This document shows, in pieces, positions 4,554-39,482 of a stretch of DNA of 61,570 nucleotides; the first letter of the stretch is position 1; each line of letters starts with the position of its first letter. The notes beneath the pieces are model-generated. The model saw only the letters and a program-made list of their open reading frames with translations. It was not told where the DNA came from and ran no database searches. This stretch comes from Flavobacterium psychrophilum (GTDB taxonomy: Bacteria; Bacteroidota; Bacteroidia; Flavobacteriales; Flavobacteriaceae): NCBI GenBank assembly GCA_945878515.1, contig CAMCTL010000001.1:1-61570 (forward strand), written 5' to 3'. Position numbers and translations under genes: made by a program.

Positions 4554-4620
4554 CAAATTTAACCCATACCTAGTTTTATATAGTTACAATTAGTCTCATT
4601 TATAGTGTAGAATTGTTTCA
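4554..4620 (-). promoter_or_regulatory. Promoter and direct-repeat operator of the 4396 operon
   Basis: Read on the minus strand: TGAAAC (4620-4615), 16 bp, TGAGAC (4598-4593), TAA, a -33 TTG (4589-4587), 25 bp, then the -7 box TAAATTTG (4561-4554). The two half-sites have a 22-bp period, and the second starts 37 bp before the -7 box. Predicted transcription starts near 4547, leaving a leader of about 150 nt. Five other promoters in the window share this layout. Confidence 0.8.
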
Positions 4621-4788
4621 TTTTTTGATTTTCACAAAGTAGTAATCCAAGACATAAAACTGCTTTTTATTCTTTAAAATATAGCAAATAATTGGCTTCT
4701 GCTCAGTGATGATAAGTCCAATAGTGCTTTGTTTAGTCTTTTGTTGTTTCAGATTCCAAAAGCCAAGAAAAGGACACGAGTACAAGCC

Positions 4789-4873
4789 AATGCCGATTAT
4801 GTATTCAATATAGTCCAATAAAAATGAACTATTTTCGTACTATATCGGCATTATACCCCAAAATATTGGACTA
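4789..4873. repeat. Two interleaved inverted repeats
   Basis: AATGCCGAT (4789-4797) pairs with ATCGGCATT (4844-4852). TAGTCCAATA (4811-4820) pairs with TATTGGACTA (4864-4873). The arms alternate A, B, A', B', a pseudoknot-like order rather than a nested hairpin. The region lies between the 5134-6984 gene and the promoter of the 4396 gene. Confidence 0.5.
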
Positions 4874-4942
4874 TTATGCAAATGTTATCGGTATAACTTC
4901 ATCGAGTTCAGTGTAAATCATGTAAATCAAATTAATAAATTA

Positions 4943-4990
4943 AAAAAAATCAACCACATAAACCTTTACTATAACAGGTCTATGTGGTTG
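4943..4990 (-). terminator. Rho-independent terminator after the 5134-6984 gene
   Basis: The arms CAACCACATA (4951-4960) and TATGTGGTTG (4981-4990) are perfect complements with a 20-base loop. On the minus strand they are followed by a run of T (complement of the A run at 4942-4949). It lies about 145 nt after the stop codon of the minus-strand glycosidase. Confidence 0.75.
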
Positions 4991-5133
4991 AAAATTTAAA
5001 AAAATTGAATTGTTCTAACCAGTTCAGTATTATTTATTGCTATATAATTAGCTAACAAGCTTCAATAAGCAAAAACATTAAATTACATCGCAACTGAAAA
5101 ATTCGAGACTGCACTTAATGAATACAATACCCA

Positions 5134-6984
5134 TTATAATGTTTTCATATTCTCACATAATTCATCAAATGACTTTTTTCCCTCGTATTTTATTATTTGC
5201 GAATGACGACCTTCTAATAGTACAGGGTTTGGTTTTCCAAAAGCATGCAATGCATATTCTTTAGGTTTATCACCCCAATTGAAAACCCCAAGGTAAATGT
5301 CTTTACCCTTTCTTGCAATCAGTAACTCGAAACCATCTAGCTTGTTAGTGCCATGCTTCCAAAGATCCAAGGGAACGGTCTCTTCCATAGCCGGAAACTC
5401 GAAAACTTCTTTCACTAATGCTTTACGTTCAGGACGCAGCGTCATCAAATTATCACTTTGTAAACGCGCAGTACCGTATAGTTTATTAAAATCGGCCCAC
5501 ATTTGAGCTTCATTGATTGTCATACTCCCACCATGTTTTACTTCCTCTTTTGAAACTGTTTCATCTTCGTCGATGGCTTCGCGGAAAACGAGGTAATCGG
5601 CATCTCCGTTAAATACTTTACCACTTAAATAAAAGTTACTAAGATTAGCTAGACAGCGCTCTGGAAAAGCTTTGTAGGTTGGATTGATATCTCCGCCTGT
5701 TCGCATTCCATCTACAAATCCAATACATGGACCAAAAACGGCAGAACAACCCAGAAAATAGATATCGTCACCCATTGCTTCTCGCATTGTTTTCATCCCT
5801 AAACGAAAACGTTCTACACCAGTGATTGTTGGGTCGTAAGCTTTAAAACTTTTAACATTTTTGTTTCTAAGTTTGATGTCATTCTCAAGTCCGTAACGCA
5901 TAAAATCCACTTTAAAATAACGAATTCCCCAATTATCTTTCATGTTCTTTATGCAATCTGCGATATGTGCCCTTGCACCCGGATGAGAATAATCGAAATA
6001 TATGTAATGCATGACTTTGTCTGATTTTTCATTTTTTTCGACAATCAACTTTCCATCCTGATCATGTAGGAAATACTCCGGATGTTTTTTATATATTTCA
6101 GATGCTTCATCACCTCTAAATCCATCAAAATGAACACCAGGTGTTTTCCCCTCAGAATTAATCCGGCTGACAATTTCCTTAAGACCACCTGGTAAAAGAT
6201 CTTGACGGATGGTTTTATAATCACCACGTTCTGTCCACCATCCGCCGTCAATTTGAATCATATTGGCTTCTGGTGCCAATTTATTCAACTGGTCCATGTT
6301 GCCATAAATATCTTTTGGAGTAAATACTCTTCCATAATAATCCCAAGTTGCCCATCCTTTGAAATCGGCGGGTTTGAGCTTTGTAATTTTATTTTCGGCA
6401 GCAATAGCTGTGCCGAATTGATCTAGCAATTCAAGCCAGTTAGTAGAACGTTTGAGAACGATTTGTTCGTATTGTATAGTCTGTCCCGGTTTTAGTTGTT
6501 TGCCTTCTCCATCGGACCACACCTCAAAAGCGCCTTGCTTTTGTGTAAAATTTGGCAAAAATATTCGCCATGAAGTCGATCCTGCAAAAATATACTGACC
6601 GTCTTTTACTTTTAGCATTTCATACATGTGACTCCAACTCTGTTTTGTCTGACTTCCAACCTTCTGCTTAAGCAAAGGTGTGCGACCCATGCAGCTTCCT
6701 CCATAAACCATATCTAGATTGTCGGACAACTGGTCTTCCAACGGAATATTCACTGTGATTTTTTCTATTGTAAGTGGTTGTTTTCCTTTATTCGATAGCG
6801 ATATTGAAAGCAGTTGAAAACCATTCTCAATTTCTTTTAACTTTTGAGAAGTTGACACTAGGCCATTAGCCTTCACATCAACCTTAATCTCTTTCCATTG
6901 CGGAGTCGTTCGCGCAAACGACACTACAAAGTTTAAAAATACCGCTGAAAGTATTGTACCTGTTTTTTTATTTAATTTTATCAT
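5134..6984 (-). CDS. Secreted GH36/GH27-like alpha-galactosidase (melibiase-type), paralogue 2
   Basis: The 616-residue protein starts with a signal peptide (residues 1-25, ending FVVSFA). It has the same architecture as the protein at 762-2603: N-terminal beta-sandwich, TIM barrel with GWATWDYYGR, QIDGGWWTERGDY, HFDGFRGDE, YFKVDFMRYG and GMRTGGDINP, and a small C-terminal beta domain. The proposed nucleophile is Asp360 (KVDF) and the acid/base Asp432 (GGDI), by analogy to clan GH-D. It is transcribed alone: its own promoter is at 7095-7161 and a strong terminator follows at 4943-4990. Retention of two similar copies under separate copies of the same promoter suggests different linkage or sulfation preferences, or a dosage effect; this is inference. 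Confidence 0.88.
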   Translation of the reverse strand: MIKLNKKTGTILSAVFLNFVVSFARTTPQWKEIKVDVKANGLVSTSQKLKEIENGFQLLSISLSNKGKQPLTIEKITVNIPLEDQLSDNLDMVYGGSCMGRTPLLKQKVGSQTKQSWSHMYEMLKVKDGQYIFAGSTSWRIFLPNFTQKQGAFEVWSDGEGKQLKPGQTIQYEQIVLKRSTNWLELLDQFGTAIAAENKITKLKPADFKGWATWDYYGRVFTPKDIYGNMDQLNKLAPEANMIQIDGGWWTERGDYKTIRQDLLPGGLKEIVSRINSEGKTPGVHFDGFRGDEASEIYKKHPEYFLHDQDGKLIVEKNEKSDKVMHYIYFDYSHPGARAHIADCIKNMKDNWGIRYFKVDFMRYGLENDIKLRNKNVKSFKAYDPTITGVERFRLGMKTMREAMGDDIYFLGCSAVFGPCIGFVDGMRTGGDINPTYKAFPERCLANLSNFYLSGKVFNGDADYLVFREAIDEDETVSKEEVKHGGSMTINEAQMWADFNKLYGTARLQSDNLMTLRPERKALVKEVFEFPAMEETVPLDLWKHGTNKLDGFELLIARKGKDIYLGVFNWGDKPKEYALHAFGKPNPVLLEGRHSQIIKYEGKKSFDELCENMKTL

Positions 6985-7094
6985 CTTAATTATTTATTCT
7001 AAATCTGGTTTCCTATTTAATTATTACTGTGCAATTTTGCGGCGTGAATTACTTTATGTAACAATCAAAATTATAAACTTTCACAATCCGCATA

Positions 7095-7161
7095 CAAATA
7101 TACTTTGTACTAATTTTTATTGAGTTTCAAAAAGTCTCATTTGTAATGCATATTTGTCTCA
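7095..7161 (-). promoter_or_regulatory. Promoter and direct-repeat operator of the 6984 gene
   Basis: On the minus strand: TGAGAC (7161-7156), 16 bp, TGAGAC (7139-7134), TTT, a -33 TTG (7130-7128), 25 bp, and the -7 box TATATTTG (7102-7095). Both half-sites are identical, making this the cleanest copy of the shared operator. Predicted start near 7088, leader about 100 nt. Confidence 0.82.
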
Positions 7162-7679: not shown

Positions 7680-7680
7680 A

Positions 7681-19494: not shown

Positions 19495-19561
19495 TGATAC
19501 AAAATCGCATATACATTGAAATTTTATTGCCTAGTCAAAGTACAGATTGTTGTTAATTTTG
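19495..19561 (+). promoter_or_regulatory. Promoter and direct-repeat operator of the giant T9SS protein gene
   Basis: TGATAC (19495-19500), 16 bp, TGAAAT (19517-19522), a -33 TTG (19527-19529), 24 bp, and the -7 box TAATTTTG (19554-19561). The spacing (22 and 37 bp) is identical to the operators of the sulfatase operons. Predicted transcription start is near 19568. Confidence 0.75.
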
Positions 19562-25800: not shown

Positions 25801-28800
25801 GACCTCTATTGCAGACGGTTCTGGATCTGGAACTATTGCTTACCAATGGCAAACCCGAACCTTACCAGCAGGTTATATGGATATAGTAGGCGCTACTGCC
25901 GCTACATATTCACCTCCAACGTTAACAGCAACTACGAATTATCGTAGATTAGCGATTTCTACACTAAATGGCGTATCTTGTAATTCAGCTTCATATTCAA
26001 ATGTTGCAACTGTTACCGTAACTGCAAATTTATCGCCTGTTGCGATAACACCTACAGCAGCACAAACCTTTTGTCAAGTGTCAGATGGCACTCAATTAAG
26101 TGTTGGTACACCAACCGACGGAGGTTCGTTTACAAGACTATGGGGTAAACGGTCTGTATCAGGCGGGGCCATTACAAACCTAAGCGCAGACGGCTCTACT
26201 TTTACCCCAACATCAAATAATGTGGGCGTCGGAACATGGCTCGTTGTTTGTACGGTAACACCTACTTGTGGCAGTCCAATGGTTTCTAACGAAGTATCTG
26301 TGACTATCAATCCAACCCCAACTTTAACAGGAGCATCGCAAGCAACGCCTGTTTGCAACGGCTCAGGCGCTACTATTAATTTGACTGGATTAGTGGCTGG
26401 TAGTACCTCAACTGTTACCTATACCATAAATGGCGGTAGCACCGTAACGCTTACTGGTCTCGTTGCCGATGGTTCAGGAGCTGCGAGTTTCACAACAGCA
26501 GCATTAACAACGGCTAATAACGGACAGGTTTTACAAATAACAGGGATTACAATTACAAGTGCCACACCCAATTGTAATTTTATCCCAACTAATCGAAATG
26601 TTACACTGGTGGTCAATTCCATTTTATCAGCAGTAGCAATAACGCCCGCTACAGCGCAAACTATTTGTTTCACAGCATCTGGATCTGTACTAACAGTAGC
26701 TGAAACGGGGGGTGGTGTTATCACTAGACAATGGGGTAAGCGTGCCTCTACAGGTGGCGTCATTACTGATATCGTAGGTCAAACCGGTACAACATATACT
26801 CCAACAGGCGCTAGTTTAGGAGCGGGTTCGTGGTTTGTGGTGTGCACCTCAACACCAACATGCGGAAGTCCAATTATTTCTAATGAGGTATCCGTTGTTG
26901 TGAGCACACCGCTTACGCTGACAGGCGCTTCGCAAGCTGCATCAATCTGTTCTGGGTCGGCGGCGGTCATTAATTTAACAGGTTTGACACCTAGTACTAC
27001 CTCGACTATTACCTATCAAATCGCTGGAGGCACTACAAGAACCGTTACTGGCGTAGTTGCAGATGCCTCTGGAAATGCAAGTTTTACCACTATTACCACC
27101 TTAACAGGAACCAACAATGGACAGACACTACAAATTACGGGTATTACGGTACCAAGTGCTAGTCCGGTTTGTACCACTGTATTTGCACAAAACCTGACGC
27201 TTTCTGTTATTGCACCAACAATAGGTACTTACTCTCAATCGACGGCGGTTTGTGCGGGATCCTCTGCCACTATTCTTTTAACAGGAATGTTACCCAATAC
27301 TACTTCTACCATATCGTATCAACTTGCGGGATCTATTCAGCCAGATATAACAGGTTTGGTTTCTGATGCATCTGGGAATGCCAGTTTTAGCATAGTAGCC
27401 AATAACTCACAAAATTTTAGAATTTTATCCATCACCGTAACAAGCACGACTCCGAATTGTACCACCGCAATAGGTAGTTCTGGTGCTTTTAATCTGTCGG
27501 TACCAACCATAGCTGCTGGGTCAATAGGGACTTCACAAACTGTTTGTAGTGGATCTTCACCAACCATTACCTCTCTAGTAGATGGTACAGGAACAGGAAT
27601 CATTACGTATGAATGGCAAGCTGATAATGGTACAGGCTATGTGACCATATCAGGAGCTAGTGATTCGACTTATGCACCACCTGCTTTGACTACAACGACG
27701 AGTTATAGAAGAAGAACCCTTGCTACTTTCAGCGGACAAACTTGTTATTCAGCCTATACTACTGCTATCACTATGACAGTTAACACTTTGACTGCCGGTG
27801 CGATTGGCGGTTCAACCACAATATGCTCTGAAAACAGTCGAAATATATTTCAATTAACAGCCGGAACTGCATCAACAGGCTCTTCTACAAGAAGCTATGA
27901 ATGGCAAGCTAATGATGGTACCGGATGGGTTACTATTCCTGGAGAAATAGATACGAGTTATCAGACCCCTATTTTAACCATAACCACCAGTTACAGAAGA
28001 AGAACGGTAGCGGTAAGCAATGGCGTTACTTGTTATTCAGACTATACTACTCCAGTTACTATTTCAGTAAATAGTGTCAATGCTGGAATTATTGGGACAA
28101 AACAATCTATTTGTGCTGGAGACACGCCGGCACCATTAACATCAATTACAGACGGAACAGGTGCAGGTACAATTACATACGAATGGGGCGTGAGAGTAGG
28201 AATTCCAGGAGCCCCCCTATTTCCTACTTTTACAACTATACCCGGAGCTACTGGGGCTACTTATTCTCCGGGAGTAACAACTATACAGACAAGTTATCGC
28301 AGAAGAGTGATTTCTACCTTAAATGGCGTAACATGCTTTTCTCCTTACGTAGCCGTAACCATTAGAGTAGGTGAACCCGAGGAGGGAGTTATAGGATCAG
28401 ACCAAACTATTTGCGCAGGAACTGTCCCAGCTACTTTAACCTCGATAGAAGCAGGAGCGGCGCCAGGAACAATTACATACGAATGGCAAGCTAATGAGGG
28501 TGCTGGCTATGTTACTATTCCAGGGGCAACTGCGGCAACATACTCACCACCAGTACTAACCACAACTACAAGTTATCAAAGAAGAACGCTTGGTGTATGT
28601 GCAGGACTGCCAACTGCGTCAATCTGGACCAATGCAGTAACTGTCACAGTAAATGTTGTAACAGCTGGGACAATAGGAACAAACCAGAATTATTGCGCTG
28701 CCACTACGCCAGCTACTTTAACCTCAACAATAGCAGGAACAGGCCCAGGCACAATTACATACGAATGGCAAACTAATGCCAGTGGTTCTTATGTTACCAT

Positions 28801-30853
28801 TTCAGGAGCAACAGCGGAAACCTACTCACCACCAGCGCTAACCGCAACTACAAGTTATCAAAGAAGAACTATTTCTACATTAAATGGCTTAACTTGTAGT
28901 TCAGTTTATACCAGTCCGATTACAATTACATTTAATAGCACTCCAGCTACTCCAACGATCAGCGGTACAACAAATGCTACTTGTTTACCTTTTACAGGAA
29001 CGGTGACTTTAGCAGGGTTGCCTGCAACTGGAACTTGGACAATTAATCCTGGAGGTATTTCGGGAACAGGAACCAGTTATACCATAACCGGTTTGTCATC
29101 AGGAAACTACACCTATACGGTTACTAACTCTAATGGTTGTATCTCCAATGCAACTAATACAGCCACAGTTGCACCCGTTGTTACGAATACATGGAATGGG
29201 ACTACTTGGTCTAATGGAACTACTTCAAATCAACAAGCGCTGATTTTTAATAGCAACTATCCTCCTGTAATTGACCCTAACGTAGATTTATATGGTTGCA
29301 GTTGTACTGTTACTACAGGCAACAATGTTACTATAAAAGCTGGCCGAAATTTGATTCTCACAGATCAAGTTAGCGTCGTAGGCACAGGAACTTTAACCTT
29401 TGAAAATACTGCGAGTTTGATACAAATTAATAATGTAACCAATTCGGGAAATGTAAGCTATAAGCGTAGCACAACCCCAATCAATAAATTTGATTATTCC
29501 TATTGGTCGACGCCAGTGTTACCCTTTACACTAGGAGGAATTTCTGCGAATACAAAAGGCGACAAGTTTTATTCCTTTGATCCTAGTGTAAACAATTGGA
29601 AACAAGAATCTTCTGCTACATCAATGGTAGCAGGAACTGGATACATAATTCGTGGGCCTGAAAGTTTTGATAACAGCAGTCGTACAGTTTATGAAGCTAC
29701 TTTTAATGGCGTACCAATTAATGGTAATATAAATATCTCAGGAGTTGTTCCTGATGCTTCCTACCTTTTGGGAAATCCATATCCTTCAGCCTTAGATGCC
29801 GATTCGTTCCTTAATGCAAACCAAAATGTGCTTGATGGGACACTCTATTTCTGGACGCATAATACACCAATTGCTGCAAATACACCAAATCCTGGTAGCG
29901 GCGCACTTGCCTATTCTGGTGATGATTATGCTACTTATAATCAAACTGGGGGTACAGCAGCTGGACCAGGTAATACCCCTTCAGGAAAAATAGCCTCTGG
30001 TCAAGGGTTCTTTGGAGGTACGAAAACAGTTGCTGCTGGTTTTGTATCATCGACTCCAATCGTTTATACTAATGCTATGCGAGTTGGTGTTGGAGGAATT
30101 ACAGGAGATAATACTCAGTTTTTCAAAACTAAAGAACCCGCTGCTAAAGCTACAACTGTTGTTGAGAAACACCGTGTTTGGCTTAACCTAACCAATGAAC
30201 AAGGTGCGTTTAAACAAACTTTAGTGGGCTATATTACCGGTGCTACAAATGAGTATGAAAATCGTTTTGATGGAAAAAGTTTTGACGGAAATGAATTCCT
30301 TGATTTTTACAGTCTGCTTCGAGACAAGAATTTAAGTATTCAAGGTCGTGGTTTGCCCTTCGATGAAAACGATGAAATCCCACTTGGCTATCGTGTAGCT
30401 GTTGCGGGTACTTTCTCAATTGCTATCGATCAAAAAGATGGAATTTTGTCCAATCAATCTGTTTTTATTGAGGATAAATTGACCAACACAGTGCACAAAT
30501 TGAATACGGGTAAATATACCTTTACTACTGCAAAAGGTATTTTTGACAATCGTTTTGTTTTGAAGTATAATAATAAAACATTAAACGTAAAGGAATTAGA
30601 ATTAAGCAAAGGAATAGCCGTTTCATTTTCAAACAGTAATAGAACTTTACTCATCAGAAACAATTTGAAAGAGGCAACAATCACTAGTGCAACACTTTTC
30701 AATATCGCAGGGCAAAAAATTGCCCATTGGGATGTTAAAGGAAGAGAACAAACTAACATTCAAATTCCAATAAGAATTATGCCATCAGCTCTTTATATTG
30801 TCAAAATTAAAACGTCAAAAGGAGATTTGAGCAAAAAGATAATTATTAAATAG
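19826..30853 (+). CDS. Giant T9SS-secreted repeat protein (3,675 residues), putative surface adhesin or glycan-binding protein
   Basis: Residues 1-19 are a signal peptide. Residues 20-250 form a Gly-rich domain (runs of GGGGG, VTYTCIS at the end). From about residue 350 come 18 modules of about 95 residues, each with a core like GTISYEWQTNASGSF, then SPPxLTATTSYQRRTVS, CYSxYT and an ending QTIC. Residues 2070-2560 hold different beta modules (RQWGKR and LTGASQA types). Five more YEWQ modules follow (2560-3030), then an Ig-like module. The region from about 3120 (TWNGTTWSNG) to the end matches the C-terminal half of the 39531-41639 protein and finishes with a type A T9SS sorting domain (NIAGQKIAHW near the end). 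Function is inferred: a long stalk on the cell surface. Its promoter is of the shared regulon type, which points to substrate capture or attachment. Confidence 0.88.
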   Translation: MMKKYLLFLFLLPILTFGQTTQTFSTAGTSSFVVPNGVTSLDVQAWGGGGCSGHNTSATSGSCGGGGGGAYTGGTISVSSGATFSYTVGAGGIYNTAGTTPPVAGSPSTFSVITANGGSRGGRSTVSNGGAGGTVSPDPGGVTSFISRAGGTGGNGGNNVSFSGGGGGGAAGSTAAGTNGAISALNTGGAGGAGGATGGGAGGNASNFSPSSSGVYGTAPGGGGGGRAYNNTGSNTNGGRGEIRVTYTCISYDVLTAAAAASQFSSGAPSTVTLTSSSLSVGTYTVTYSTTNPVTSGNTATMTFSGTTGTFLTMALTADSDITVTSLKSGSGVGCSSTITTNNTATAVLDSVVVTAGAVATEQTICSGNTPAALTSSSDGTTSSGTLSYEWQTNASGSYVTIPSENGGTYSPPALTATTSYQRRTLALNGGNTTYSGYTTPVTITANTAASGAIGITTSTICNGTTAAITSSTAGTGSGTITYEWQTNATGSYVTIPSEIAATYTTPALTTTTSYQRRTVSTLNGVACYSAYTSPLTITVSATVTAGSIGSAQTYCAGSSVIPAPFTSLTAGTGSGTITYEWSENSSGSYVVIAGATAASYTPTTPITVTTTYRRRTVSTFNTRVCNSSYVTAVVTFNVLTEGTIGNGQTICNEANLSVSNTLDGTATTGNSTRSYEWQADNGSGYVTLSGVVTSSCPTGALTTTTSYRRRTVSLSNGTTCYSNYTAPVTIIVQDLVTIGAIGPVQTILPGETPAPLTSLTDGTGSGTITYEWQTNASGTFTGGGTIATTSGYAPPALTVNTGYRRRTISVQNGVTCTSAFSQISVMVNNATAGTIGTDQTICNGDTPATLTSVLAGVPTNGLAVISYEWQDNSSGSYLTVPGAISDTYSPPALSATTSYQRRTVSAFNGTTFYSAYTTPITITVNPAVTAGTIGTAQTICNGGIPTSISSSADGTGSGTISYEWQDNSGGSYATISGANASTYSPLALTATTSYQRRTVSLFNGINCYSAYTSPVTITVSDVVTAGTIGTAQTICNGDTPSTLTSTTAGTGSGTISYEWQTNASGSFITIASATSDTYSPPSLTATTSYQRRTVSTFNGTTCYSTYTSPITITINNVTQGSIATAQTICSTNTPAALTSTTSGTGSGTISYEWQTNASGSFVTIPSATSDTYSPPSLTTTTSYQRRTVSLFNGTTCYSTYTSPVTITVNNVTEGIIGTSQIILSGTAPAVLTSLTDGTGSGTVSYQWQTLTFTGSFYTDIAGAFGATYAPPTLTVGRFYRRRTVSILPGRTCYSNYSNSITISVNDVTAGAIGTNQTICNGSTPAALTSTADGTGFSPLSYEWQTNASGSFATISGANAATYAPPALTATTTYQRRTVSMAVGTTLYSPYTTAVTITVNNAVTAGAIGTAQTICNGTAPPALTSTTAGTGSGTISYEWQTNASGSFVTIPSATSDTYSPPSLTATTSYQRRTVSVSGGTTCYSSYTTPIVITVGAAVTAGVIGTAQTICNANTPATLTSSSAGTGSGTVSYEWQDNSSGSYVTISGATSATFSPPALTASTSYQRRTVSLFNGTTCYSAYTTPVTINVNNVAEGIIGTSQTILSGTAPASLTSQTDGTGSGTVSYEWQTRTLPGTYTDIPGAFGATYAPPTLTATTNYRRRTVSILNGITCNSSYANIITITVNDVTAGAIGTNQTICNGTIPATLTSTTAGTGLGALTYEWQTNASGSFVTISGATSATYAPPALTSTTSFQRRTVSVSGGTTLYSPYTASVTITVNNAVTAGSIETAQTICNGTAPATLTSTTAGTGSGIISYEWQTNASGSFVTIPSATSDSYSPPSLTATTSYQRRTVSVSGGTTCYSSYTTPIVITVGAAVTAGSIGNTKTICNGTAPGTITNSGAGAGSGTITYEWQDNSSGSYVTISGATTLTYVPPTLTATTSYQRRTVSVFNGTTCYSIYTTPVTITVSNVVTEGTIGTSQTICTGTAPATLTSIADGSGSGTIAYQWQTRTLPAGYMDIVGATAATYSPPTLTATTNYRRLAISTLNGVSCNSASYSNVATVTVTANLSPVAITPTAAQTFCQVSDGTQLSVGTPTDGGSFTRLWGKRSVSGGAITNLSADGSTFTPTSNNVGVGTWLVVCTVTPTCGSPMVSNEVSVTINPTPTLTGASQATPVCNGSGATINLTGLVAGSTSTVTYTINGGSTVTLTGLVADGSGAASFTTAALTTANNGQVLQITGITITSATPNCNFIPTNRNVTLVVNSILSAVAITPATAQTICFTASGSVLTVAETGGGVITRQWGKRASTGGVITDIVGQTGTTYTPTGASLGAGSWFVVCTSTPTCGSPIISNEVSVVVSTPLTLTGASQAASICSGSAAVINLTGLTPSTTSTITYQIAGGTTRTVTGVVADASGNASFTTITTLTGTNNGQTLQITGITVPSASPVCTTVFAQNLTLSVIAPTIGTYSQSTAVCAGSSATILLTGMLPNTTSTISYQLAGSIQPDITGLVSDASGNASFSIVANNSQNFRILSITVTSTTPNCTTAIGSSGAFNLSVPTIAAGSIGTSQTVCSGSSPTITSLVDGTGTGIITYEWQADNGTGYVTISGASDSTYAPPALTTTTSYRRRTLATFSGQTCYSAYTTAITMTVNTLTAGAIGGSTTICSENSRNIFQLTAGTASTGSSTRSYEWQANDGTGWVTIPGEIDTSYQTPILTITTSYRRRTVAVSNGVTCYSDYTTPVTISVNSVNAGIIGTKQSICAGDTPAPLTSITDGTGAGTITYEWGVRVGIPGAPLFPTFTTIPGATGATYSPGVTTIQTSYRRRVISTLNGVTCFSPYVAVTIRVGEPEEGVIGSDQTICAGTVPATLTSIEAGAAPGTITYEWQANEGAGYVTIPGATAATYSPPVLTTTTSYQRRTLGVCAGLPTASIWTNAVTVTVNVVTAGTIGTNQNYCAATTPATLTSTIAGTGPGTITYEWQTNASGSYVTISGATAETYSPPALTATTSYQRRTISTLNGLTCSSVYTSPITITFNSTPATPTISGTTNATCLPFTGTVTLAGLPATGTWTINPGGISGTGTSYTITGLSSGNYTYTVTNSNGCISNATNTATVAPVVTNTWNGTTWSNGTTSNQQALIFNSNYPPVIDPNVDLYGCSCTVTTGNNVTIKAGRNLILTDQVSVVGTGTLTFENTASLIQINNVTNSGNVSYKRSTTPINKFDYSYWSTPVLPFTLGGISANTKGDKFYSFDPSVNNWKQESSATSMVAGTGYIIRGPESFDNSSRTVYEATFNGVPINGNINISGVVPDASYLLGNPYPSALDADSFLNANQNVLDGTLYFWTHNTPIAANTPNPGSGALAYSGDDYATYNQTGGTAAGPGNTPSGKIASGQGFFGGTKTVAAGFVSSTPIVYTNAMRVGVGGITGDNTQFFKTKEPAAKATTVVEKHRVWLNLTNEQGAFKQTLVGYITGATNEYENRFDGKSFDGNEFLDFYSLLRDKNLSIQGRGLPFDENDEIPLGYRVAVAGTFSIAIDQKDGILSNQSVFIEDKLTNTVHKLNTGKYTFTTAKGIFDNRFVLKYNNKTLNVKELELSKGIAVSFSNSNRTLLIRNNLKEATITSATLFNIAGQKIAHWDVKGREQTNIQIPIRIMPSALYIVKIKTSKGDLSKKIIIK
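20900..26030 (+). repeat. Tandem ~285-bp modules with a higher-order 1,140-bp period
   Basis: Eighteen modules are seen, usually 282-288 bp apart when measured at the YEWQ codons. Modules 10-13 and 14-17 form a four-module super-repeat. The Y(E/Q)WQ codons of modules 10, 14 and 18 start at 23561, 24701 and 25841, exactly 1,140 bp apart each time. Modules 12 and 16 are nearly identical. This indicates duplication of a block of four modules after the single modules had diverged. Confidence 0.85.
27590..28900 (+). repeat. Second block of five tandem modules
   Basis: Five further YEW modules (cores near 27610, 27900, 28180, 28480 and 28765) lie after the interposed RQWGKR and LTGASQA modules. 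They are more diverged than the first block. The third has a loop insertion with VGIPGAP. Confidence 0.75.
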
Positions 30854-31219: not shown

Positions 31220-33355
31220 TTAATTTTTTATAAATTCAATAATCTTTACTGTATGGGCTGGCTGCACTAATGTTAGTTTGTTGGATTCAATTTTGAAATT
31301 CTTTTTTGTCCACAATTCAGTCAATTTGTATTTTGAATTGTTTAATTCGAAATCCGTTTTTAGATTGTAGGTTTTAGTTACATCCTTGTCGAGCCAGTTG
31401 AAAATTGTGATAATTAATCGATCTTTGGTTTCCAATTTCCATATTGTTGGGATATCAACACCTGAAAATAAATCGAGTGGAATGGCATGAACGCCTAGTT
31501 TATTGACGGCCATAATATCTCTGTTTTTTAATAATTCCAATCGTTCAGCAGGCAGTGATTCGACTTTATCTCCAAAGAAGAAAAGTCCACCCATTATAGC
31601 TTCTAAAGTCATGTGGCATTTTGCTTCTTCAATACTATATTGCGGCGAAACGAAAAAAGCATCGGGATCGACAATAGCAATATTTTTGTGCATATAATAG
31701 TTTTGTGATACGGCACGCGCAAATCGGATTAATCCTTTTTCAACCTGATCGTCTTCTATAGTACCCAATGTTTTGCCGTAAGTTATGTTGGTATATGGCT
31801 CTGCTTCAGATTTATATCCTGGGTGGTTGATGTCATTTCCTATTCGGATGGCATCATAACATTCTAAAGCACCAAACACATAACCCATACTGCGAGTCAC
31901 GGTTAAATCATCGGGCAATGCAGTCCGAATGGCACGAATTGTTTTATTGTGTGCTTGCATAAAAGTCATGCTTGAATCATATCGTTTTCCTTCGTCTAAG
32001 CCACCGTAAGTATGATCCCATTTCATAAAGGAAGGTCTGTATCCTTCTACAATTTGTTGGTATCGTGCGGCAGAAAAAGCAGGTACTTCAGGATGACTAC
32101 CGTCAACATAAACAGTTCCTATGGTGGTTTCCATTTCGTCATCTCCTTTTGCCACTTTTTTAGTTACTGCTGGTTTCAAAATCCAATCCGGATGCTGAGC
32201 CGTAATGGGGTCTTTTGGATTGGTGCGTAATGGGCTCACGTGTAGTCCAAAATCAAGTCCCAAGTTATTAACATAATCCGACAAATATCGAATTCCATTA
32301 GGAAAAGTGCGGTTATCTACAGTGTAAAGTCCAGGTTCTGTCCACCAACCTCCGTCAATTTGAATTGTTTTCCACCCGTAATCTTTTAGATTTTTATTTA
32401 TAAAATCTGCTGCAATTAAAAATTGTTTTTCAGTAATCTCACGTCCATAAGTATGCCAAGAACTCCAACCTGCTTCTGTGCTATGCATAGGTTTTCCTTT
32501 ACGAACATTCTCACCCATAATTTTTCCGGTTTCCAGCAGTATTTTTGTAGGACGTTGATTTTGCCAGTAACCCACCAAAAAAGCATCGGTTGTAATAGTA
32601 TTTCCTGCGGGAACCCATATTTTTTCTCTTTCGAAAATCGCTCCACTTCTTGCGGTTAATTTTAATTTGTTGAAGTCGTTTTCAATAGGTAATTCCCATT
32701 TAAAGTTATTGGGCCACAATTCGCTCGCTATACTGGCAAATGAGAAGGCACAATTATTTTTGTCGTTGACTAACATACTTAGCCAAACCCCTGTATGCGC
32801 TTTAGAGTAGGTACCTGCTTTTGCTTTCTTTGTGTTTAATTGATAGGGATACATAAGCGCTCCGGTGTGCGGCGCAGAAGCACTCTCGGTAAAGACAATC
32901 CAATCTTTTGTATTTCCTGATAAAACTATGTTTTCTTTGGCTGACGTAAACAACTTGATGCCACCTAATTTAAATTTCTCGGTAGCTTTTAGTGAAGAGT
33001 TCATTACCAAATAAGGACGCCCTTCCATCAATTCAAATTGGATTGTAAAATTTGAAATCAGGGGATGGCTCTCACAAATAAGATATAAATATTCGACTTT
33101 GCCGTTAAAATTGTTCGCTTCACTCAATCGGGTGCCTTCTTTTTTCTCCCAACGAATACTTTTAAATTCACGAACAGAAGTCCATTTGTCGTTGATTTCA
33201 ATTTCGGGTGAAAGATTATTTATTTGTGCCGATTTACTATCCCATTGAATACTATATTCGGGACTGCCATTGGTGTATTTGACAACGGGTTGTGCCACAA
33301 GCTTTGGCAATACAAACACAAGCATTAAGCTGATAATCGTTTTTAATTTATTCAT
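31220..33355 (-). CDS. Secreted GH36-like alpha-galactosidase (melibiase)
   Basis: This 711-residue protein has a signal peptide (1-21, ending KLVAQ). An N-terminal beta-sandwich (about 25-280) is followed by a TIM barrel with GWSSWHTYGREI, QIDGGWWTEPGLY, LHVSPLRTNP, FMKWDHTYGG and RIGNDINHPGY. The KWD signature is the classical GH36 nucleophile motif (Asp447); Asp508 in GNDI is the probable acid/base. A C-terminal beta domain follows (about 630-711). It is much closer to canonical GH36 than the paralogues at 762 and 5134. It is the last gene of the run from 38781, 115 bp below the multiheme cytochrome. It should remove alpha-linked galactose or a related sugar in the periplasm or at the surface. 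Confidence 0.88.
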   Translation of the reverse strand: MNKLKTIISLMLVFVLPKLVAQPVVKYTNGSPEYSIQWDSKSAQINNLSPEIEINDKWTSVREFKSIRWEKKEGTRLSEANNFNGKVEYLYLICESHPLISNFTIQFELMEGRPYLVMNSSLKATEKFKLGGIKLFTSAKENIVLSGNTKDWIVFTESASAPHTGALMYPYQLNTKKAKAGTYSKAHTGVWLSMLVNDKNNCAFSFASIASELWPNNFKWELPIENDFNKLKLTARSGAIFEREKIWVPAGNTITTDAFLVGYWQNQRPTKILLETGKIMGENVRKGKPMHSTEAGWSSWHTYGREITEKQFLIAADFINKNLKDYGWKTIQIDGGWWTEPGLYTVDNRTFPNGIRYLSDYVNNLGLDFGLHVSPLRTNPKDPITAQHPDWILKPAVTKKVAKGDDEMETTIGTVYVDGSHPEVPAFSAARYQQIVEGYRPSFMKWDHTYGGLDEGKRYDSSMTFMQAHNKTIRAIRTALPDDLTVTRSMGYVFGALECYDAIRIGNDINHPGYKSEAEPYTNITYGKTLGTIEDDQVEKGLIRFARAVSQNYYMHKNIAIVDPDAFFVSPQYSIEEAKCHMTLEAIMGGLFFFGDKVESLPAERLELLKNRDIMAVNKLGVHAIPLDLFSGVDIPTIWKLETKDRLIITIFNWLDKDVTKTYNLKTDFELNNSKYKLTELWTKKNFKIESNKLTLVQPAHTVKIIEFIKN

Positions 33356-33470: not shown

Positions 33471-35720
33471 CTAAATCCCTAAATTTTGAAATATTTCTTG
33501 ATAATTAGGATTGTTGGGGTCTAATTGTTTCAGTTTAATCGCGGTTTGAGTGGCATTTATTCTATTATTAGATTGAATATAGACAAAGGTCAATGCGTAA
33601 TACAGTTCAGCATTTGATGGATTTATTTGAATCCCTTTTTGTAAAACCATTAGAGCTTCTTTTGGCTTTTTGTTTTGATTTAATAGTAATCCGTAATTGT
33701 AATACACTTTTGGGTTTACTGATTTTAATTCCACTGCTTTTGCAAATGAGTTTTCGGCTGCTTTCAAATTGTTCATTTCAAAATAAAGCAACGCTCTATT
33801 GAAATAAATACGTTCATTAGTAGGATCATTTTTTATAGCTAAATCCAATGTTTTCAAGGCTTGTTCATTTTTTCCTTGCGAATTATAGGTAGCCGATAAA
33901 TTGAGCAAAGCATAATTCATGTTACTGTCTTTTTTCAAGCCACGCAAATAAAACCTTTCAGCATTTGGATAATCTTTTAATTTCAAATAATAATCAGCCA
34001 ACATCACATTTCCAGTTGAAAAATCAGTTTGATAACGAAGTGATTTTTCCAATTCCATTTGTGCTGTGGCAAAGGCTTGAGCATATTCAGATGACACTTG
34101 TTCTGAAGGAATTGTGATGTACAAATCGGCTGCTGCAATCCGAACTGCTCTTACTTTATCTGAAAGTAAAGGTCCTACTGCTGCAATCCAATTTTCTGAA
34201 GGGAAAGAAGCTAAACTTTTTAGAGCACGATACCTTATTTGAGCTTCTTTACTAGAGAGTCTTCCCAAAATGGTATTCAAGCTAGATTGAGTTTGTATAG
34301 AACCCAGATAAAAAGTTGCTGTTGCTTTAATTATTTTTGGAACAAATTTATTGTCGATAAGCTTTTGGAGGTGCATTTCACTTTTGGCGTCCAACTGACT
34401 TCCTGGTATTAAATCCTGAGCAAAATGATATTTCCTTTTGGGACCGTACCATTTAATTACAGCGTCGGCCAATTCTTTCTCAGATTTGTCTTTATGACAA
34501 TTGCTACAAGCATTGGGAGTTCCATATTTTACGGATAAATCGGGTCGTGGTACCCGAAAACCGTGATCGTGTCGCAAATCATTTCCCATGAACACCTTTC
34601 CAGGCATGTGACAATTTACACAAGCAGCAGATGGCGTTCCTTTGGGATGAAAGGTATGTGTTGGCACATCATATTTAGTAGTCAAATGACATTGTGTACA
34701 AGTTAAATTGCCCGCCAACTTTAATTTTGTACTGTGTGGATTATGACAATTGATGCATGATACCCCTTTTGCATACATTTTGCTTTGCAAAAATGAAGTG
34801 TATATGTAATCCTCATCTTTTACTTGACCATCGGCATAAAAAAACTCTGAATCTGGAATTTGTGGAATGTAATTGTCCATGATTTCCCTACTTTCGATAT
34901 GATTGCCATTGATTTCAGAAATACGGGCGTGACAGGGAGCGCAGGTATTAATCAGCTCGGTTTGTCCGGTACGTTTACTCAATTTTAGATAACTTCCGAC
35001 CACTTTTTTCCTTGATTTGTAATCACTACTGTTCATATAATCAACATGAAGCTTGCCGGCGCCATGGCAACTTTCGCAACTTACATTAATAATGGAATAA
35101 CTGGTTTTGTATGTATCTGTTTTCATATCGTAGTTTTTACGAAGGTTTGTTGAATGACAAGTGGCACACATTGTGTTCCAATTTTGAGCATTTCCAGTCC
35201 AATGCAACCAATCATGAGAAGGGATTTTTTGACCAGGATACTGGTTGAACCATTTCTTTTTATTGACATCCCAACACAAACGGGGTACTTGCAAACGTCC
35301 TCCAGGAAATTGGACTAAATATTGTTGTAACGGTTTATAACCAAAGATGTACTTTACTTCAAAATCATGGTTTTTACCGTCATCACCTTCAGTATTGATG
35401 TAGAATTTATTACCTTTTTTAAAAAACCGACTTGTAACTCCATCTGCAGTAAAAGTCAAGTTATTAAAATCGCCCTTTACGGTTGAATCATTTGGCGGCA
35501 ACATTGACATATAATGATCAGAATGTTTCCAATCCGTAAATTCTGCCGTATGACATTTCTTGCAGGATTGATCTCCTACATAAGATTTTGAATGCTCCTG
35601 AATTTTGGAATATTTTTCGTCTCGAGCGCTATAATTATCTGCAATGAATATATTAAAAACAATGAGAAATGCTACTATCAAGGCAATTAGTATAGCTAGA
35701 TAATTCTTTTTTGTAAACAT
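33471..35720 (-). CDS. Eight-heme cytochrome c with HEAT-like and TPR regions, membrane-anchored
   Basis: I prefer the ATG at 35720 (749 residues) over a TTG five codons earlier. Residues 7-27 are a single transmembrane helix or uncleaved signal (LAILIALIVAFLIVFNIF). Eight CxxCH heme-binding motifs follow: CKKCH (53-57), CATCH, CESCH, CAPCH, CINCH, CTQCH, CVNCH and CSNCH, all within about residues 50-420. The layout resembles the cytochrome c554/multiheme family. Residues 450-560 look like HEAT-type helical repeats and 565-749 contain TPRs (for example YFNRALLYFEMNNLKAAENSFAKAVEL). It would move electrons in the periplasm and dock partners through the repeats. It sits inside a glycosidase/sulfatase operon, 57 bp below the sulfatase. 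The redox partner is unknown. Confidence 0.88.
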   Translation of the reverse strand: MFTKKNYLAILIALIVAFLIVFNIFIADNYSARDEKYSKIQEHSKSYVGDQSCKKCHTAEFTDWKHSDHYMSMLPPNDSTVKGDFNNLTFTADGVTSRFFKKGNKFYINTEGDDGKNHDFEVKYIFGYKPLQQYLVQFPGGRLQVPRLCWDVNKKKWFNQYPGQKIPSHDWLHWTGNAQNWNTMCATCHSTNLRKNYDMKTDTYKTSYSIINVSCESCHGAGKLHVDYMNSSDYKSRKKVVGSYLKLSKRTGQTELINTCAPCHARISEINGNHIESREIMDNYIPQIPDSEFFYADGQVKDEDYIYTSFLQSKMYAKGVSCINCHNPHSTKLKLAGNLTCTQCHLTTKYDVPTHTFHPKGTPSAACVNCHMPGKVFMGNDLRHDHGFRVPRPDLSVKYGTPNACSNCHKDKSEKELADAVIKWYGPKRKYHFAQDLIPGSQLDAKSEMHLQKLIDNKFVPKIIKATATFYLGSIQTQSSLNTILGRLSSKEAQIRYRALKSLASFPSENWIAAVGPLLSDKVRAVRIAAADLYITIPSEQVSSEYAQAFATAQMELEKSLRYQTDFSTGNVMLADYYLKLKDYPNAERFYLRGLKKDSNMNYALLNLSATYNSQGKNEQALKTLDLAIKNDPTNERIYFNRALLYFEMNNLKAAENSFAKAVELKSVNPKVYYNYGLLLNQNKKPKEALMVLQKGIQINPSNAELYYALTFVYIQSNNRINATQTAIKLKQLDPNNPNYQEIFQNLGI

Positions 35721-35777
35721 ATAATTTCCTGGCAAAACACCTGTAATCTTCTACAGAAAACGAGCTGATACTTATTT

Positions 35778-37394: not shown

Positions 37395-37395
37395 A

Positions 37396-38781
37396 TTATT
37401 TTTTTGTGTTTAATTCAACAAGATTGGCCCTCAAACAAACATTCATAAAAGCAGCCGATGTCCAAAGTTGAGATCCTGAACCTGAAATTAATCCAGAAGG
37501 CAATGGTACTTTTTCATGAAAGGAACCAAATCCCCCCCATTCTTTATCACGTTTATCAGACAACTTCGTGCCCATTGTTCGAGCCAATAGTGCAGCATTG
37601 TAACCTGTATAATCTTTACCATCGGCAATCTCCTTTGCTTGTAAAAAAAAGGTATCGCAAAATGGCCAAGCTGCGGCATTGTGGTCTCCTGTTCCATCTC
37701 CTAAAAATGGATGAATAAGCGGCGTTCCATATTGATTTGATGGATAATTATCGATGGCTTTTCTAGCAGCTTTGCCTTTTACAATTCCAAAAAGTACAGC
37801 AAAAGCAGTCCCAAGATTGTGTTGGTTAGGCATTACTTTTCCATTTCTGTCTTTATAATAGGTAAAGGTGCCATCAGGCAATAAGAGCTCCTTTAAAATC
37901 GCTTTTTTAAGCGCCTCGGCTCTAGTAGCCCAAGCTTTAGATTCTTGTGGTAAATTACATTTACCAGCAGCATTAGCCAATGATACCATCGCTTTATAAT
38001 ACAAACAATTGGTAGATGTGCTTTTCAACAACACACAATCCGCTTGAGAATATCCCTCTGGATACCCATCGGATTGAATGTCCTGAAAAGTGGGTTGACA
38101 TCGATATAAACCATCTGTTTTGTCATACCAAGGCGCATAAAGAGTCTCAAAATTACTTTTACCATTGGTGTAAAACCAATTCCAATCGGCTACTTCAGTA
38201 TGGCTTTTAAACAAATCATCAACTGCCCAAATCCAAACTACATCATCCGTACGACGGGTGATACTATTGCTTTTGAATTTTGCCATTATTTGCAACTTGT
38301 CGTCCGTAATCGCGTCCCAAGGCGCATCAATCTCTTTAATTATTTCTTTGGTCGAAACTTTATACCCCATTTTGGCTACCACATCTCTTGTTACCCGAAG
38401 GGATTTCATCATCTCTTGAGGATAAATAGCATTGAGACCCAAAATTCCTGCAAACGAAATATCACGAACATAAACACGGTCAGTGTAACGTCTTCCAGCG
38501 GCAAAATAAGTCCCATAATCGTTGGTAATCAAATTGAGTTCTACATCGTGCAGGGCAATGTTCCACATTTTTTTAGTAATTGGCGTAGCATCTACTTTCA
38601 GAACGGTTGCGTTCTTTGGGCTAACATTTGGTAAGTCCTCTGTAGTAAAATGCCCCAAGCCATCTTCTAGCGAATTGGCTTTTAATATTAATGGACTTTT
38701 GTCGTAAAGAAATTTTTGTCCGTACGAATTAGTTATTGTCCAGAAAATGGAGCACAAGAATAGTAACGAAATATTTTTCAT
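37396..38781 (-). CDS. Secreted (alpha/alpha)-barrel glycoside hydrolase-like protein
   Basis: I choose the ATG at 38781 (461 residues). A TTG at 38808 lies inside the proposed -7 promoter box, so it cannot be translated from that promoter. The signal peptide is residues 1-22 (ending NSYGQ). The rest is helical with six-hairpin glycosidase features: RRYTDRVYVRDISFAGILGLN, RRTDDVVWIWAVDDLF, DGYPEGYSQADC, NQHNLGTAFAVLFG, GDHNAAAWPFCDTFFLQA and WGGFGSFHE. Conserved acidic residues in VRD, RTDD and WGGFGSFHE are candidate catalytic positions. I cannot name the GH family. It is first in the operon with the sulfatase, the cytochrome and GH36. Confidence 0.72.
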   Translation of the reverse strand: MKNISLLFLCSIFWTITNSYGQKFLYDKSPLILKANSLEDGLGHFTTEDLPNVSPKNATVLKVDATPITKKMWNIALHDVELNLITNDYGTYFAAGRRYTDRVYVRDISFAGILGLNAIYPQEMMKSLRVTRDVVAKMGYKVSTKEIIKEIDAPWDAITDDKLQIMAKFKSNSITRRTDDVVWIWAVDDLFKSHTEVADWNWFYTNGKSNFETLYAPWYDKTDGLYRCQPTFQDIQSDGYPEGYSQADCVLLKSTSTNCLYYKAMVSLANAAGKCNLPQESKAWATRAEALKKAILKELLLPDGTFTYYKDRNGKVMPNQHNLGTAFAVLFGIVKGKAARKAIDNYPSNQYGTPLIHPFLGDGTGDHNAAAWPFCDTFFLQAKEIADGKDYTGYNAALLARTMGTKLSDKRDKEWGGFGSFHEKVPLPSGLISGSGSQLWTSAAFMNVCLRANLVELNTKK

Positions 38782-38805
38782 AAAGAGTTTAATTGAGTTA
38801 AGTAA

Positions 38806-38873
38806 CAAATAAAATGATTTAATAAGAGCCAGATGTATCTAAAAAGTTTCAATTATCTAGCCATTTTGTTGCA
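38806..38873 (-). promoter_or_regulatory. Promoter and direct-repeat operator of the 38781-31220 operon
   Basis: On the minus strand: TGCAAC (38873-38868), 16 bp, TGAAAC (38851-38846), 32 bp, then TTTATTTG (38813-38806) as the -7 box. It is the weakest copy: one half-site deviates, the -33 reads TTA, and the spacing is one base longer. Predicted start near 38799 gives a leader of about 18 nt to the ATG at 38781. Confidence 0.62.
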
Positions 38874-39415
38874 AGTTGACAATAAAACGACCCACTTTTT
38901 ACTATAGCGAAATAAAATCCGCAAAAAGCGATGTAGTTGCAGTAAATTGAATATTCTCTGTTGAGTGAAAAGGTTGTTCTTGATGTCAGAGCTTTGTATA
39001 TCTTCTAACTTGAAAACAGTCAAATTTCACTAGATTTTATATTCACTAGGTATTTGTGTGAAAGCAAAACCATTATAACCCGAATTGCGCATAAGATAGC
39101 ACTATTGATGATTAGAATAACTTTATAAAATTTGTAGCAAAGTAAATAGAACTTTGATAAAGGTTTAAATTGATAAAATTAATGCTAATACAAAATCCAT
39201 TTAGAAACATGTTGCGTTTTAAAACCACAAAATAGTTAAAAAAAAGCAAATTTTTCTTTAATGATTGGTAAGGCAATAATCTATAACCGATTGCTTCAAA
39301 ATTGACACTATTGGTAAAATTTGCCTAAAAAATTATATAAACCTAAAAATCGAATATAATTTTAAACGACATTCTAATTTTATTTTCTCAAGTGCGCCCA
39401 AAACGCCTCAAACCG

Positions 39416-39482
39416 TGACACAAAACAGCCCTGTTATTGACACTTTTTTGCCCAATGCCCTTTTGCTTAAGTTTTACCTTTG
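39416..39482 (+). promoter_or_regulatory. Promoter and direct-repeat operator of the 39531 gene
   Basis: TGACAC (39416-39421), 16 bp, TGACAC (39438-39443), a T run ending in the -33 TTG (39448-39450), 24 bp, and the -7 box TACCTTTG (39475-39482). Predicted start near 39489; leader about 42 nt. Confidence 0.82.

What the first reader, a model, noticed from the sequence alone, without database searches (positions are those of the whole stretch)
4554..39482. One rigid promoter architecture at six operons: TGAnAC-N16-TGAnAC-N31-TAnnTTTG
Six transcription units carry the same elements at the same distances: 4554-4620, 7095-7161, 18770-18836, 19495-19561, 38806-38873 and 39416-39482. The half-sites have a 22-bp period in all six, and the second half-site starts 37 bp before the -7 box in five and 38 in one. 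All face their gene, and the downstream half-site sits next to the -33 region. The period is two helical turns, which suits an AraC-type dimer that recruits RNA polymerase. I know no published operator of this exact form; that it is undescribed is inference.
Basis: partly seen in the sequence, partly recalled or inferred. Interest (0 to 1): 0.92.

Follow-up and report, generated by a model that had tools for sequence, protein, structure and literature searches.

The report
HTCS operator locked to its promoter
Six gene sets for digesting a sulfated sugar polymer share one likely on-switch: a doubled DNA word, probably read by a membrane sugar sensor, at a fixed distance from the promoter; related bacteria seem to use other words at about the same distance.

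Summary
In detail: all six sites lie as described and the spacing is far above chance (6 sites at up to 2 mismatches; shuffles average 0.19). The element recurs before sulfatase, glycosidase, SusC-like and T9SS genes in Flavobacteriaceae with the orthologous HTCS. An extended pattern is in 6 of 8 genus genomes with that HTCS and 0 of 191 without. The neighbouring AraC gene has no full-length relative in 12 such genomes, so the HTCS is the likely binder.

Direct repeats about 21 bp apart were predicted for Bacteroides HTCSs in 2013 (PMC3878776): a known kind. The lock to the -7 box I did not find in print. A sequence-blind test at 90 loci of other HTCSs finds 21-bp repeats, downstream half-site about 37 bp before TAnnTTTG; in 40 hold-out loci that cell ranks first of 1045. 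Half-site words go largely, not strictly, with the HTCS DNA-binding clade.

Best reading: a phospho-HTCS dimer acts as an AraC-type class II activator. Binding and transcription starts are untested; one HTCS clade lacks the repeat; evidence from a phylum-wide draw is inconclusive.

The parts
4554..4620 (-). HTCS-type promoter of GH42-like gene 2672-4396: half-sites 4615-4620 and 4593-4598, -7 box 4554-4561; 157 bp to ATG
   Evidence: 0 mismatches; faces gene
7095..7161 (-). HTCS-type promoter of melibiase-like gene 5134-6984: half-sites 7156-7161 and 7134-7139, box 7095-7102; 110 bp to ATG
   Evidence: 0 mismatches; same element before a relative of this gene at 81-86% identity in L001, L004, L013, L019, L026
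18770..18836 (-). HTCS-type promoter of the sulfatase gene 17000-18703 and perhaps the genes after it: half-sites 18831-18836 and 18809-18814, box 18770-18777 (one mismatch); 66 bp to ATG
   Evidence: 1 mismatch; divergent from the 19495 site, as a similar pair is in L001 at 22977(-) and 23648(+)
19495..19561 (+). HTCS-type promoter of 3675-aa glycine-rich protein gene 19826-30853: half-sites 19495-19500 and 19517-19522, box 19554-19561; 264 bp to the ATG used
   Evidence: 1 mismatch; same element before a relative in L001 at 23648
38806..38873 (-). HTCS-type promoter (N32) of glycoside-hydrolase-like gene (listed as 37396-38808): half-sites 38868-38873 and 38846-38851, box 38806-38813 (one mismatch); 24 bp to the first in-frame ATG
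   Evidence: 2 mismatches; element before a relative of this gene at 68-89% identity in L007, L014, L020, L029
39416..39482 (+). HTCS-type promoter of T9SS-sorted 702-aa protein gene 39531-41639: half-sites 39416-39421 and 39438-39443, box 39475-39482; 48 bp to ATG
   Evidence: 0 mismatches; T9SS sorting domain; element before partial relatives at 29-48% identity in L002, L003, L004, L006, L016, L019, L027
42796..46911 (+). Hybrid two-component system (HTCS), 1371 aa: Reg_prop/Y_Y_Y sensor, HisKA, HATPase, receiver, AraC-type HTH; the likely binder
   Evidence: Pfam; SHIP motif at residue 1192; relatives at 63-85% identity in 11 loci
47321..48181 (+). Separate AraC-family gene, considered as binder and rejected
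   Evidence: Pfam; in L001-L029 its only matches are the HTH of the HTCS; in 12 whole genomes with the HTCS ortholog all 12 listed matches cover its HTH part only (residues 161-285, 30-36% identity; none in G043, G107, G132)

Best explanation
Each site is an HTCS-dependent sigma-A promoter. The HTCS encoded at 42796-46911 senses a product of a sulfated glycan in the periplasm, phosphorylates its own receiver domain and dimerises its two AraC-type DNA-binding domains (inferred from HTCS biology). The two domains bind in tandem to two half-sites on one face of the helix, TGAnACAAAt and TGAnACTtTTT, 22 bp apart. The downstream half-site lies at about -49 to -39 if the box spans -12 to -5, as reported for F. 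psychrophilum (PMC9723704), so the bound dimer abuts the -33 region. It would stand in for the weak or missing -33 element by touching RNA polymerase, probably region 4 of the primary sigma factor. That contact would explain why the distance to the -7 box is fixed within 1 bp. About the same distance is found at other HTCS loci of the family, with other half-site words. Shown here: sequence, spacing, conservation, tracking with the HTCS ortholog, and the register at other HTCS loci. Inferred: binding, phosphorylation dependence, sigma contact, transcription start, inducer.
For: Spacing above chance in the window. In 28 loci plus the window, 65 direct repeats with up to 1 mismatch: an exact box follows at N31 in 11 and N32 in 9, at any other offset at most once. 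Whole genomes: 32 hits at up to 1 mismatch in 8 genomes (11 for N31, 21 for N32), 3 for the reversed pattern; 22 of the 32 are on the contig that carries the HTCS and 6 on one 65.7-kb contig of G001 with related genes. Co-occurrence: 24-position N32 pattern at up to 1 mismatch in 6 of 8 genus genomes with the ortholog and 0 of 191 without; in the family sample, at up to 2 mismatches, only in G001, the one genome of 299 with the ortholog. G043 and G092 were not seeds of the motif and carry both; G107 has the N31 form at 1 mismatch. The AraC gene has no full-length relative in 12 genomes with the ortholog. A sequence-blind test on other HTCS loci peaks at lag 21, -36 to -38. Half-site words go largely with HTH clades.
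Against: No binding or transcription data. G008 and G132 hold an HTCS ortholog (72% and 67%) but gave no hit: G008, G132; both are small assemblies. The shorter 16-position N32 pattern at up to 1 mismatch also hits 36 of the 191 genomes without the ortholog, many in one recurring sequence. Four of the eight ortholog genomes had helped to shape the consensus. Orthologs were called at E up to 1e-100 (genus) or 1e-150 (family), so short fragments may be missed. The HTCS gene itself has no site at up to 3 mismatches. HTCS clade NNPKYF (15 loci) shows no 21/22-bp repeat at this register. Loci from a phylum-wide draw are inconclusive. In HTCS loci lag 21 has a raised background at all positions (hold-out mean 4.1 loci, maximum 9, against 13 at -37), and lag 21 was also the commonest repeat lag in the control loci in a box-independent scan.
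Confidence: 0.86

Rival explanations
1. The separate AraC-family protein at 47321-48181 binds the repeats.
For: It lies 409 bp after the HTCS and has an AraC-type HTH.
Against: No full-length relative in 12 genomes with the HTCS ortholog: 9 of 12 have matches at E up to 1e-8, all to the HTH part alone at 30-36% identity, and 7 of the 12 matches are the HTCS itself. 10 of these 12 genomes carry the motif at up to 1 mismatch in a 16- or 24-position search. The motif tracks the HTCS ortholog in the genus sample.
Confidence: 0.04
2. The element is HTCS-bound but not rigid by need: the spacing is kept because PUL promoters were copied with their genes.
For: Several sites precede related genes, so not all 42 are independent.
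Against: The bases between are weakly conserved while half-sites and box are kept; unrelated target genes share it; other half-site words at other HTCS loci have about the same register.
Confidence: 0.06
3. A repressor operator, or a global regulator site found before many sugar genes.
For: Some HTCSs repress (BT2391, told in PMC11253607, passages read).
Against: The repeat lies upstream of the -33 region and not over the -7 box or the start; six of eight HTCS-bearing genus genomes hold the extended pattern and 0 of 191 others do, so it is not a global regulator of the genus.
Confidence: 0.03

Closest known systems
Predicted HTCS binding motifs of Bacteroides thetaiotaomicron (Ravcheev et al. 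2013, PMC3878776; passages read)
   Same: Direct repeat of two conserved sites, average distance 21 bp, two helix turns on one side of DNA, before polysaccharide-utilization genes; motif groups generally correspond to clusters of HTCS proteins.
   Different: The passages read give no fixed distance to the -7 box and the text has no TAnnTTTG; period here is 22 bp; Flavobacteriaceae and another sequence. Its supplementary alignments could not be read.
AraC-family class II activators with fixed operator-to-box distance (AggR promoters, PMC6392122, passages read; AraC araI1-I2, recalled)
   Same: One AraC-type operator at a set distance from the promoter box; for AggR 21-22 bp from the -10, read by its authors as overlap of the -35 and contact with sigma domain 4. 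AraC I1-I2 is a direct repeat about 21 bp apart next to the -35 (recalled).
   Different: Here the candidate activator is a sensor kinase fused to the HTH, the box is TAnnTTTG and the sigma factor is that of Bacteroidota.
Sigma-A (sigma-ABfr) promoters of Bacteroidota (PMC7366714, PMC9723704, PMC12632263; passages read)
   Same: -7 box TAnnTTTG.
   Different: A TTG in the place of the -33 element (24 to 19 bp before the box) is found 6 times in 42 sites.
SusR operators (PMC3878776, passages read)
   Same: Direct repeats before polysaccharide genes.
   Different: Centres 67 or 77 bp apart.

Membership tests
HTCS operator | Direct repeat of two conserved sites | tested here: met
   Six of six in the window, 42 sites kept in all
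HTCS operator | About 21 bp between sites | tested here: met
   22 bp here; 21 bp is the peak at other HTCS loci
HTCS operator | Presence tracks the cognate HTCS | tested here: met
   6 of 8 genus genomes with the ortholog, 0 of 191 without, 24-position N32 pattern at up to 1 mismatch
HTCS operator | Bound by the HTCS DNA-binding domain | not testable with these tools
   Needs gel shift or footprint
AraC-type class II activator site | Operator next to the -35/-33 region at fixed distance from the promoter box | tested here: met
   In the scan not selected for distance, exact boxes pile up at N31 (11) and N32 (9), other offsets at most once; the place relative to the start is inferred from PMC9723704
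AraC-type class II activator site | Contact with RNA polymerase sigma region 4 | not testable with these tools
   Inference from geometry
Sigma-A promoter of Bacteroidota | -7 box TAnnTTTG | tested here: met
   Four of six window sites exact, two with one mismatch
Sigma-A promoter of Bacteroidota | -33 TTTG element | tested here: not met
   TTG 24 to 19 bp before the box 6 times in 42 sites
SusR operator | Repeat centres 67 or 77 bp apart | tested here: not met
   22 bp
HTCS protein (S/CHIP-DK group of PMC11253607) | S/CHIP in the receiver loop | tested here: met
   SHIP at residue 1192; the D and K positions were not tested

The most novel reading that the evidence does not exclude
HTCS promoters follow one grammar: two half-sites 21 or 22 bp apart, the downstream one starting about 37 bp before TAnnTTTG, with only the half-site word changing with the HTH clade of the HTCS. 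If so, operator, regulon and recognition code of most HTCSs could be read from genome sequence by scanning that fixed register.
Probability: 0.48. Interest if true: 0.75.

Novelty: new member of a known kind. Interest (0 to 1): 0.57.

Why it matters
HTCSs are a main class of regulator for glycan use in Bacteroides; the 2013 study predicted motifs for 16 of 36 in B. theta and left 20 without one (PMC3878776). A fixed register to the -7 box would give a direct way to find operators of uncharacterised HTCSs, to link scattered genes to a sensor (here SusC-like, T9SS and adhesin-like genes, some on another contig), and to read the recognition code of the HTCS helix-turn-helix by comparing clades. 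It also gives a simple rule for sugar-induced promoters that reporter fusions can test.

Tried and rejected
Rejected: chance; the local AraC gene as binder; a dispersed repeat (half-sites and box are kept, the bases between only weakly); SusR-type sites (spacing); a canonical -33 element.

Led nowhere or weak: promoters chosen by a SusC-like regular expression gave only 4 exact boxes; pairwise identity of promoters within a locus gave one position barely above threshold and five shared-repeat hits; a box-independent scan of intergenic repeats was muddied by a raised lag 21 in control loci too; 20 loci from a phylum-wide draw were inconclusive, one clear case, L174; HTCS clade NNPKYF (15 loci) shows nothing at the register. 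The DR-only pattern at up to 2 mismatches was too loose (155 of 199 genomes, list cut), and the 16-position N32 pattern at up to 1 mismatch hit 42 of 199.

Errors and limits of mine: wrongly put control locus L127 into the group 'rest'; one search repeats the test with correct sets and is the one I rely on. In some searches the core ACATATGT is its own reverse complement, so each repeat was counted on both strands; I give halves in the text. In one search some sites are counted under both N31 and N32. Locus L028 is the contig of L008 and was left out. The overlapping loci L090 and L101 were not merged. The control loci are smaller (288 kb, 351 boxes, against 1787 boxes in HTCS loci), and 30 of the 40 (L030-L059) had been drawn by a lag-22 pattern. 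The hold-out loci had been looked at before the split was computed. HTH clades were grouped by eye. Sites before related genes are not independent. Some candidate boxes with one mismatch are surely false.
Full report
WHAT IS THERE. The window looks like a Flavobacterium locus for a sulfated glycan: six sulfatases, two GH42-like and three melibiase-like enzymes, a GDSL esterase, a glycoside-hydrolase-like protein, a T9SS-sorted protein, a 3675-aa glycine-rich protein, and an HTCS of 1371 aa (Reg_prop and Y_Y_Y sensor, HisKA, HATPase, receiver, AraC-type HTH) followed by a separate AraC-family gene. No whole genome is held for it.

CHECK. The six sites read as described. At 16 fixed positions three have no mismatch, two have one, one has two. 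Of 624 spacing combinations tried in the same window, 557 give no hit at up to two mismatches; 16/31 gives five, and the most given by any other is three. Shuffles give 0.19 on average for N31 and N32 together, maximum 2 in 200, against 6 seen.

ORTHOLOG LOCI. A scan of genome contigs with the HTCS gave 11 loci at 63-85% identity, from Flavobacterium luteum, Flavobacteria bacterium BAL38, a Polaribacter and eight MAG contigs. The same element is in several of them: at 16/31 and 16/32, with up to 2 mismatches, 9 and 8 hits (some sites counted under both) against a mean of 0.33 per spacing over 572 spacings. In 28 loci plus the window, 65 direct repeats with up to one mismatch were found; an exact TAnnTTTG follows at N31 in 11 cases and N32 in 9, and at any other distance at most once. 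I kept 42 of 51 candidate sites for a profile (box with up to one mismatch at N31 or N32): 16 have N31 and 26 N32; consensus TGAaACAAAtt.aCa.taTaAaTGA.ACTtTTT, then about 26 weakly conserved bases and TAnnTTTG. So the two half-sites share TGAnAC but differ in their flanks, and the lock is 31-32, not 31 alone. Targets include melibiase-like, GH42-like, GH-like, T9SS and adhesin-like genes, a TonB-plug/CarboxypepD_reg (SusC-like) receptor, a sodium:solute symporter and S9-peptidase-like T9SS proteins (one of the nine proteins scanned there had no family).

WHOLE GENOMES. In the genomes of eight of those loci the N31 pattern at up to one mismatch gave 11 hits (reversed pattern 0), N32 gave 21 (reversed 3). 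22 of the 32 are on the contig with the HTCS (one of these, G004:C10:4464, about 140 kb from it), 6 on one 65.7-kb contig of G001 whose genes are of the same kind, 3 on short contigs of G007, one isolated (G006:C245). G008 had none.

CO-OCCURRENCE. In 199 genomes of the genus, at E up to 1e-100, an HTCS of 64% identity or more is in eight: G001, G003, G004, G005, G043, G092, G107, G132 (the last four cut by contig ends); the other matches listed have 30-38% (list cut). The 24-position pattern (N32) at up to one mismatch is in six of the eight and in 0 of 191 others; at up to two mismatches 6 of 8 and 1 of 191; at up to three 8 of 191 (Fisher p 4e-10 and 2e-9 for the first two). The looser 16-position pattern hits 36 of those 191. 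G001, G003, G004 and G005 had helped to shape the consensus; of the four that had not, G043 and G092 have it (2 of 4 against 0 of 191, p 3e-4). G107 has the N31 form of the long pattern at one mismatch; G132 and G008 have neither form (N31 form not searched in the 191). In 299 family genomes only G001 has a match above 39% identity, and only G001 has the long N32 pattern at up to two mismatches; seven others have hits at three.

WHO BINDS. The AraC gene at 47321 has no counterpart in L001-L029. In 12 whole genomes with the HTCS ortholog it finds only HTH parts of other proteins, 30-36% identity over roughly 90-125 residues, often the HTCS itself, and nothing in three. The HTH of the 11 ortholog loci reads GHSNPQYFSKWFKS in its second recognition region. 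The HTCS has the SHIP loop that PMC11253607 (passages read) ties to phosphorylation-controlled DNA binding; that paper shows by gel shift that response-regulator parts of two B. theta HTCSs bind PUL promoters.

DOES THE GEOMETRY REACH FURTHER? I took 50 loci of other HTCSs (30-39% identity) from the family and genus samples, 40 control loci (10; 30 short ones brought in), and later 40 fresh HTCS loci. In the first 50, the word ACATATGT, noticed there, repeats at lag 21 in 15 places (30 strand counts) at up to 2 of 16 mismatches, against at most 3 places for other lags and 0 at lag 21 in controls; with up to 4 mismatches 23 strand counts are followed by a box (up to one mismatch) exactly 25 bp on, other offsets having at most 8. 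With the rule fixed, the 40 fresh loci gave 9 at that offset against a mean of 1.6 and a maximum of 4 elsewhere; at up to 2 mismatches the repeat itself is rare there, one place. The AC of ACATATGT falls on the AC of TGAnAC in N31 sites, 33-32 bp before the box.

WORD AND CLADE. I grouped the HTCSs by eye by the second recognition region. Of the 20 loci in which I had noted an ACATATGT repeat at the register, 14 belong to the NTASYF-type group, which has 30 loci, and six to other groups (L104, L142, L144, L128, L135, L161). SSPSYF loci show TGCTTCAAA-like repeats at -37 in four or five of 12, STAYF loci TGAnnnATAA-like repeats at -37 in four of six, both at lag 21; DLKYF loci a weak GTATCCCC repeat at lag 22 in four of nine; NNPKYF loci (15) none. 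So word and clade go together largely, not strictly, and many loci show no repeat at the register.

SEQUENCE-BLIND TEST. For every intergenic TAnnTTTG (up to one mismatch) before a gene I asked at which lag and position a 9-mer repeats (7 of 9, with G+C). Over 90 HTCS loci, counting loci once per cell, the top three of 1045 cells are lag 21 at -36, -37 and -38 (21, 21 and 20 loci; mean cell 4.1; lag 21 outside -40 to -31 mean 8.9, maximum 15); neighbouring cells overlap and are not independent. In the 40 hold-out loci alone the top cell is lag 21 at -37 with 13 loci, against a mean cell of 1.55 and a lag-21 background of 4.1 with maximum 9. In the 50 discovery loci lag 21 at -33 and -36 have 10 each, and a lag-22 cell at -27, which I take for one conserved promoter type of the NNPKYF loci, has 12. 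Control loci have 0-2 at lag 21 in this region, but their mean cell is only 0.7. The window's register, -37, is thus found again without using its sequence, with a period one base shorter. Twenty loci from a phylum-wide draw, of untold kinship, are inconclusive: lag 21 has 17 at -40 to -30 against 7.5 expected from elsewhere, but lag 18 has 19.

HOW IT WORKS. If the box spans -12 to -5 (PMC9723704, passages read), the half-sites start at about -71 and -49 and the second ends near -39. A TTG in the -33 place is rare (6 in 42); for F. [quoted passage not shown] This is the place of a class II AraC-type activator: for AggR the site is 21-22 bp from the -10 and is read as overlapping the -35 and touching sigma domain 4 (PMC6392122, passages read). 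Hence the model: phospho-HTCS dimer, tandem binding, contact with polymerase, fixed distance.

KNOWN OR NEW. Direct repeats with 21 bp average distance for 16 of 36 B. theta HTCSs, two helix turns, motif groups following HTCS groups: published in 2013 (PMC3878776, abstract and passages read). A fixed distance to the -7 box was not met in the passages read of that paper nor in searches; other papers opened for passages (PMC10766802, PMC11501099, PMC12125979, PMC12632263) did not show it either. I file it as a new member of a known kind, with a promoter lock that may be a family-wide rule.

Noticed in passing
L068-L117 and L128-L167, for example L073:12179-12240, L083, L103, L107: A second HTCS operator word, ACATATGT repeated at 21 bp with the -7 box 25 bp after the second copy, in 14 of 30 loci of the HTCS group whose second recognition region reads GFNTASYFSKCFKKQFG or close, and in six loci of other groups.
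   Followed up: partly
L146, L155, L158, L076 (TGCTTCAAA-like) and L139, L140, L153, L154 (TGAnnnATAA-like): Two further half-site words with lag 21 at -37, in two other HTCS HTH groups (SSPSYF and STAYF).
   Followed up: partly
L108-L114, L116, L117 and others of group NNPKYF: HTCS group with no 21/22-bp repeat at the register; its operators, if any, are placed or built otherwise.
   Followed up: no
L022:4531 (G004) and L190:8826 (G092): A conserved site outside the locus, TGACACTAAAA...TGACACAAAA with an exact box at N32, in G004 before a T9SS-sorted protein of 1473 aa or more with fn3 and a weak G8 match; the flanks of the half-sites differ from the other sites.
   Followed up: partly
L003, L008, L010 record titles: MAG contigs titled Chryseobacterium gleum, Rhizobium sp. 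and Bdellovibrio sp. carry this HTCS at 70-73% identity: probably misnamed or mixed bins.
   Followed up: no
window 46977-47004 (-): A TGAnAC-N16-TGAnAC pair with one mismatch between the HTCS and the AraC gene, without a box; probably chance.
   Followed up: no
window 33471-35735 (-): A multihaem-cytochrome-like and TPR protein lies among the sulfatase and glycosidase genes.
   Followed up: no
L001:22423-22723 (-): Only short pieces related to the melibiase-like gene 31220-33355 follow the L001 site at 22977; the first long open frame there, 497 bp on, is an amine-oxidase-like gene.
   Followed up: no
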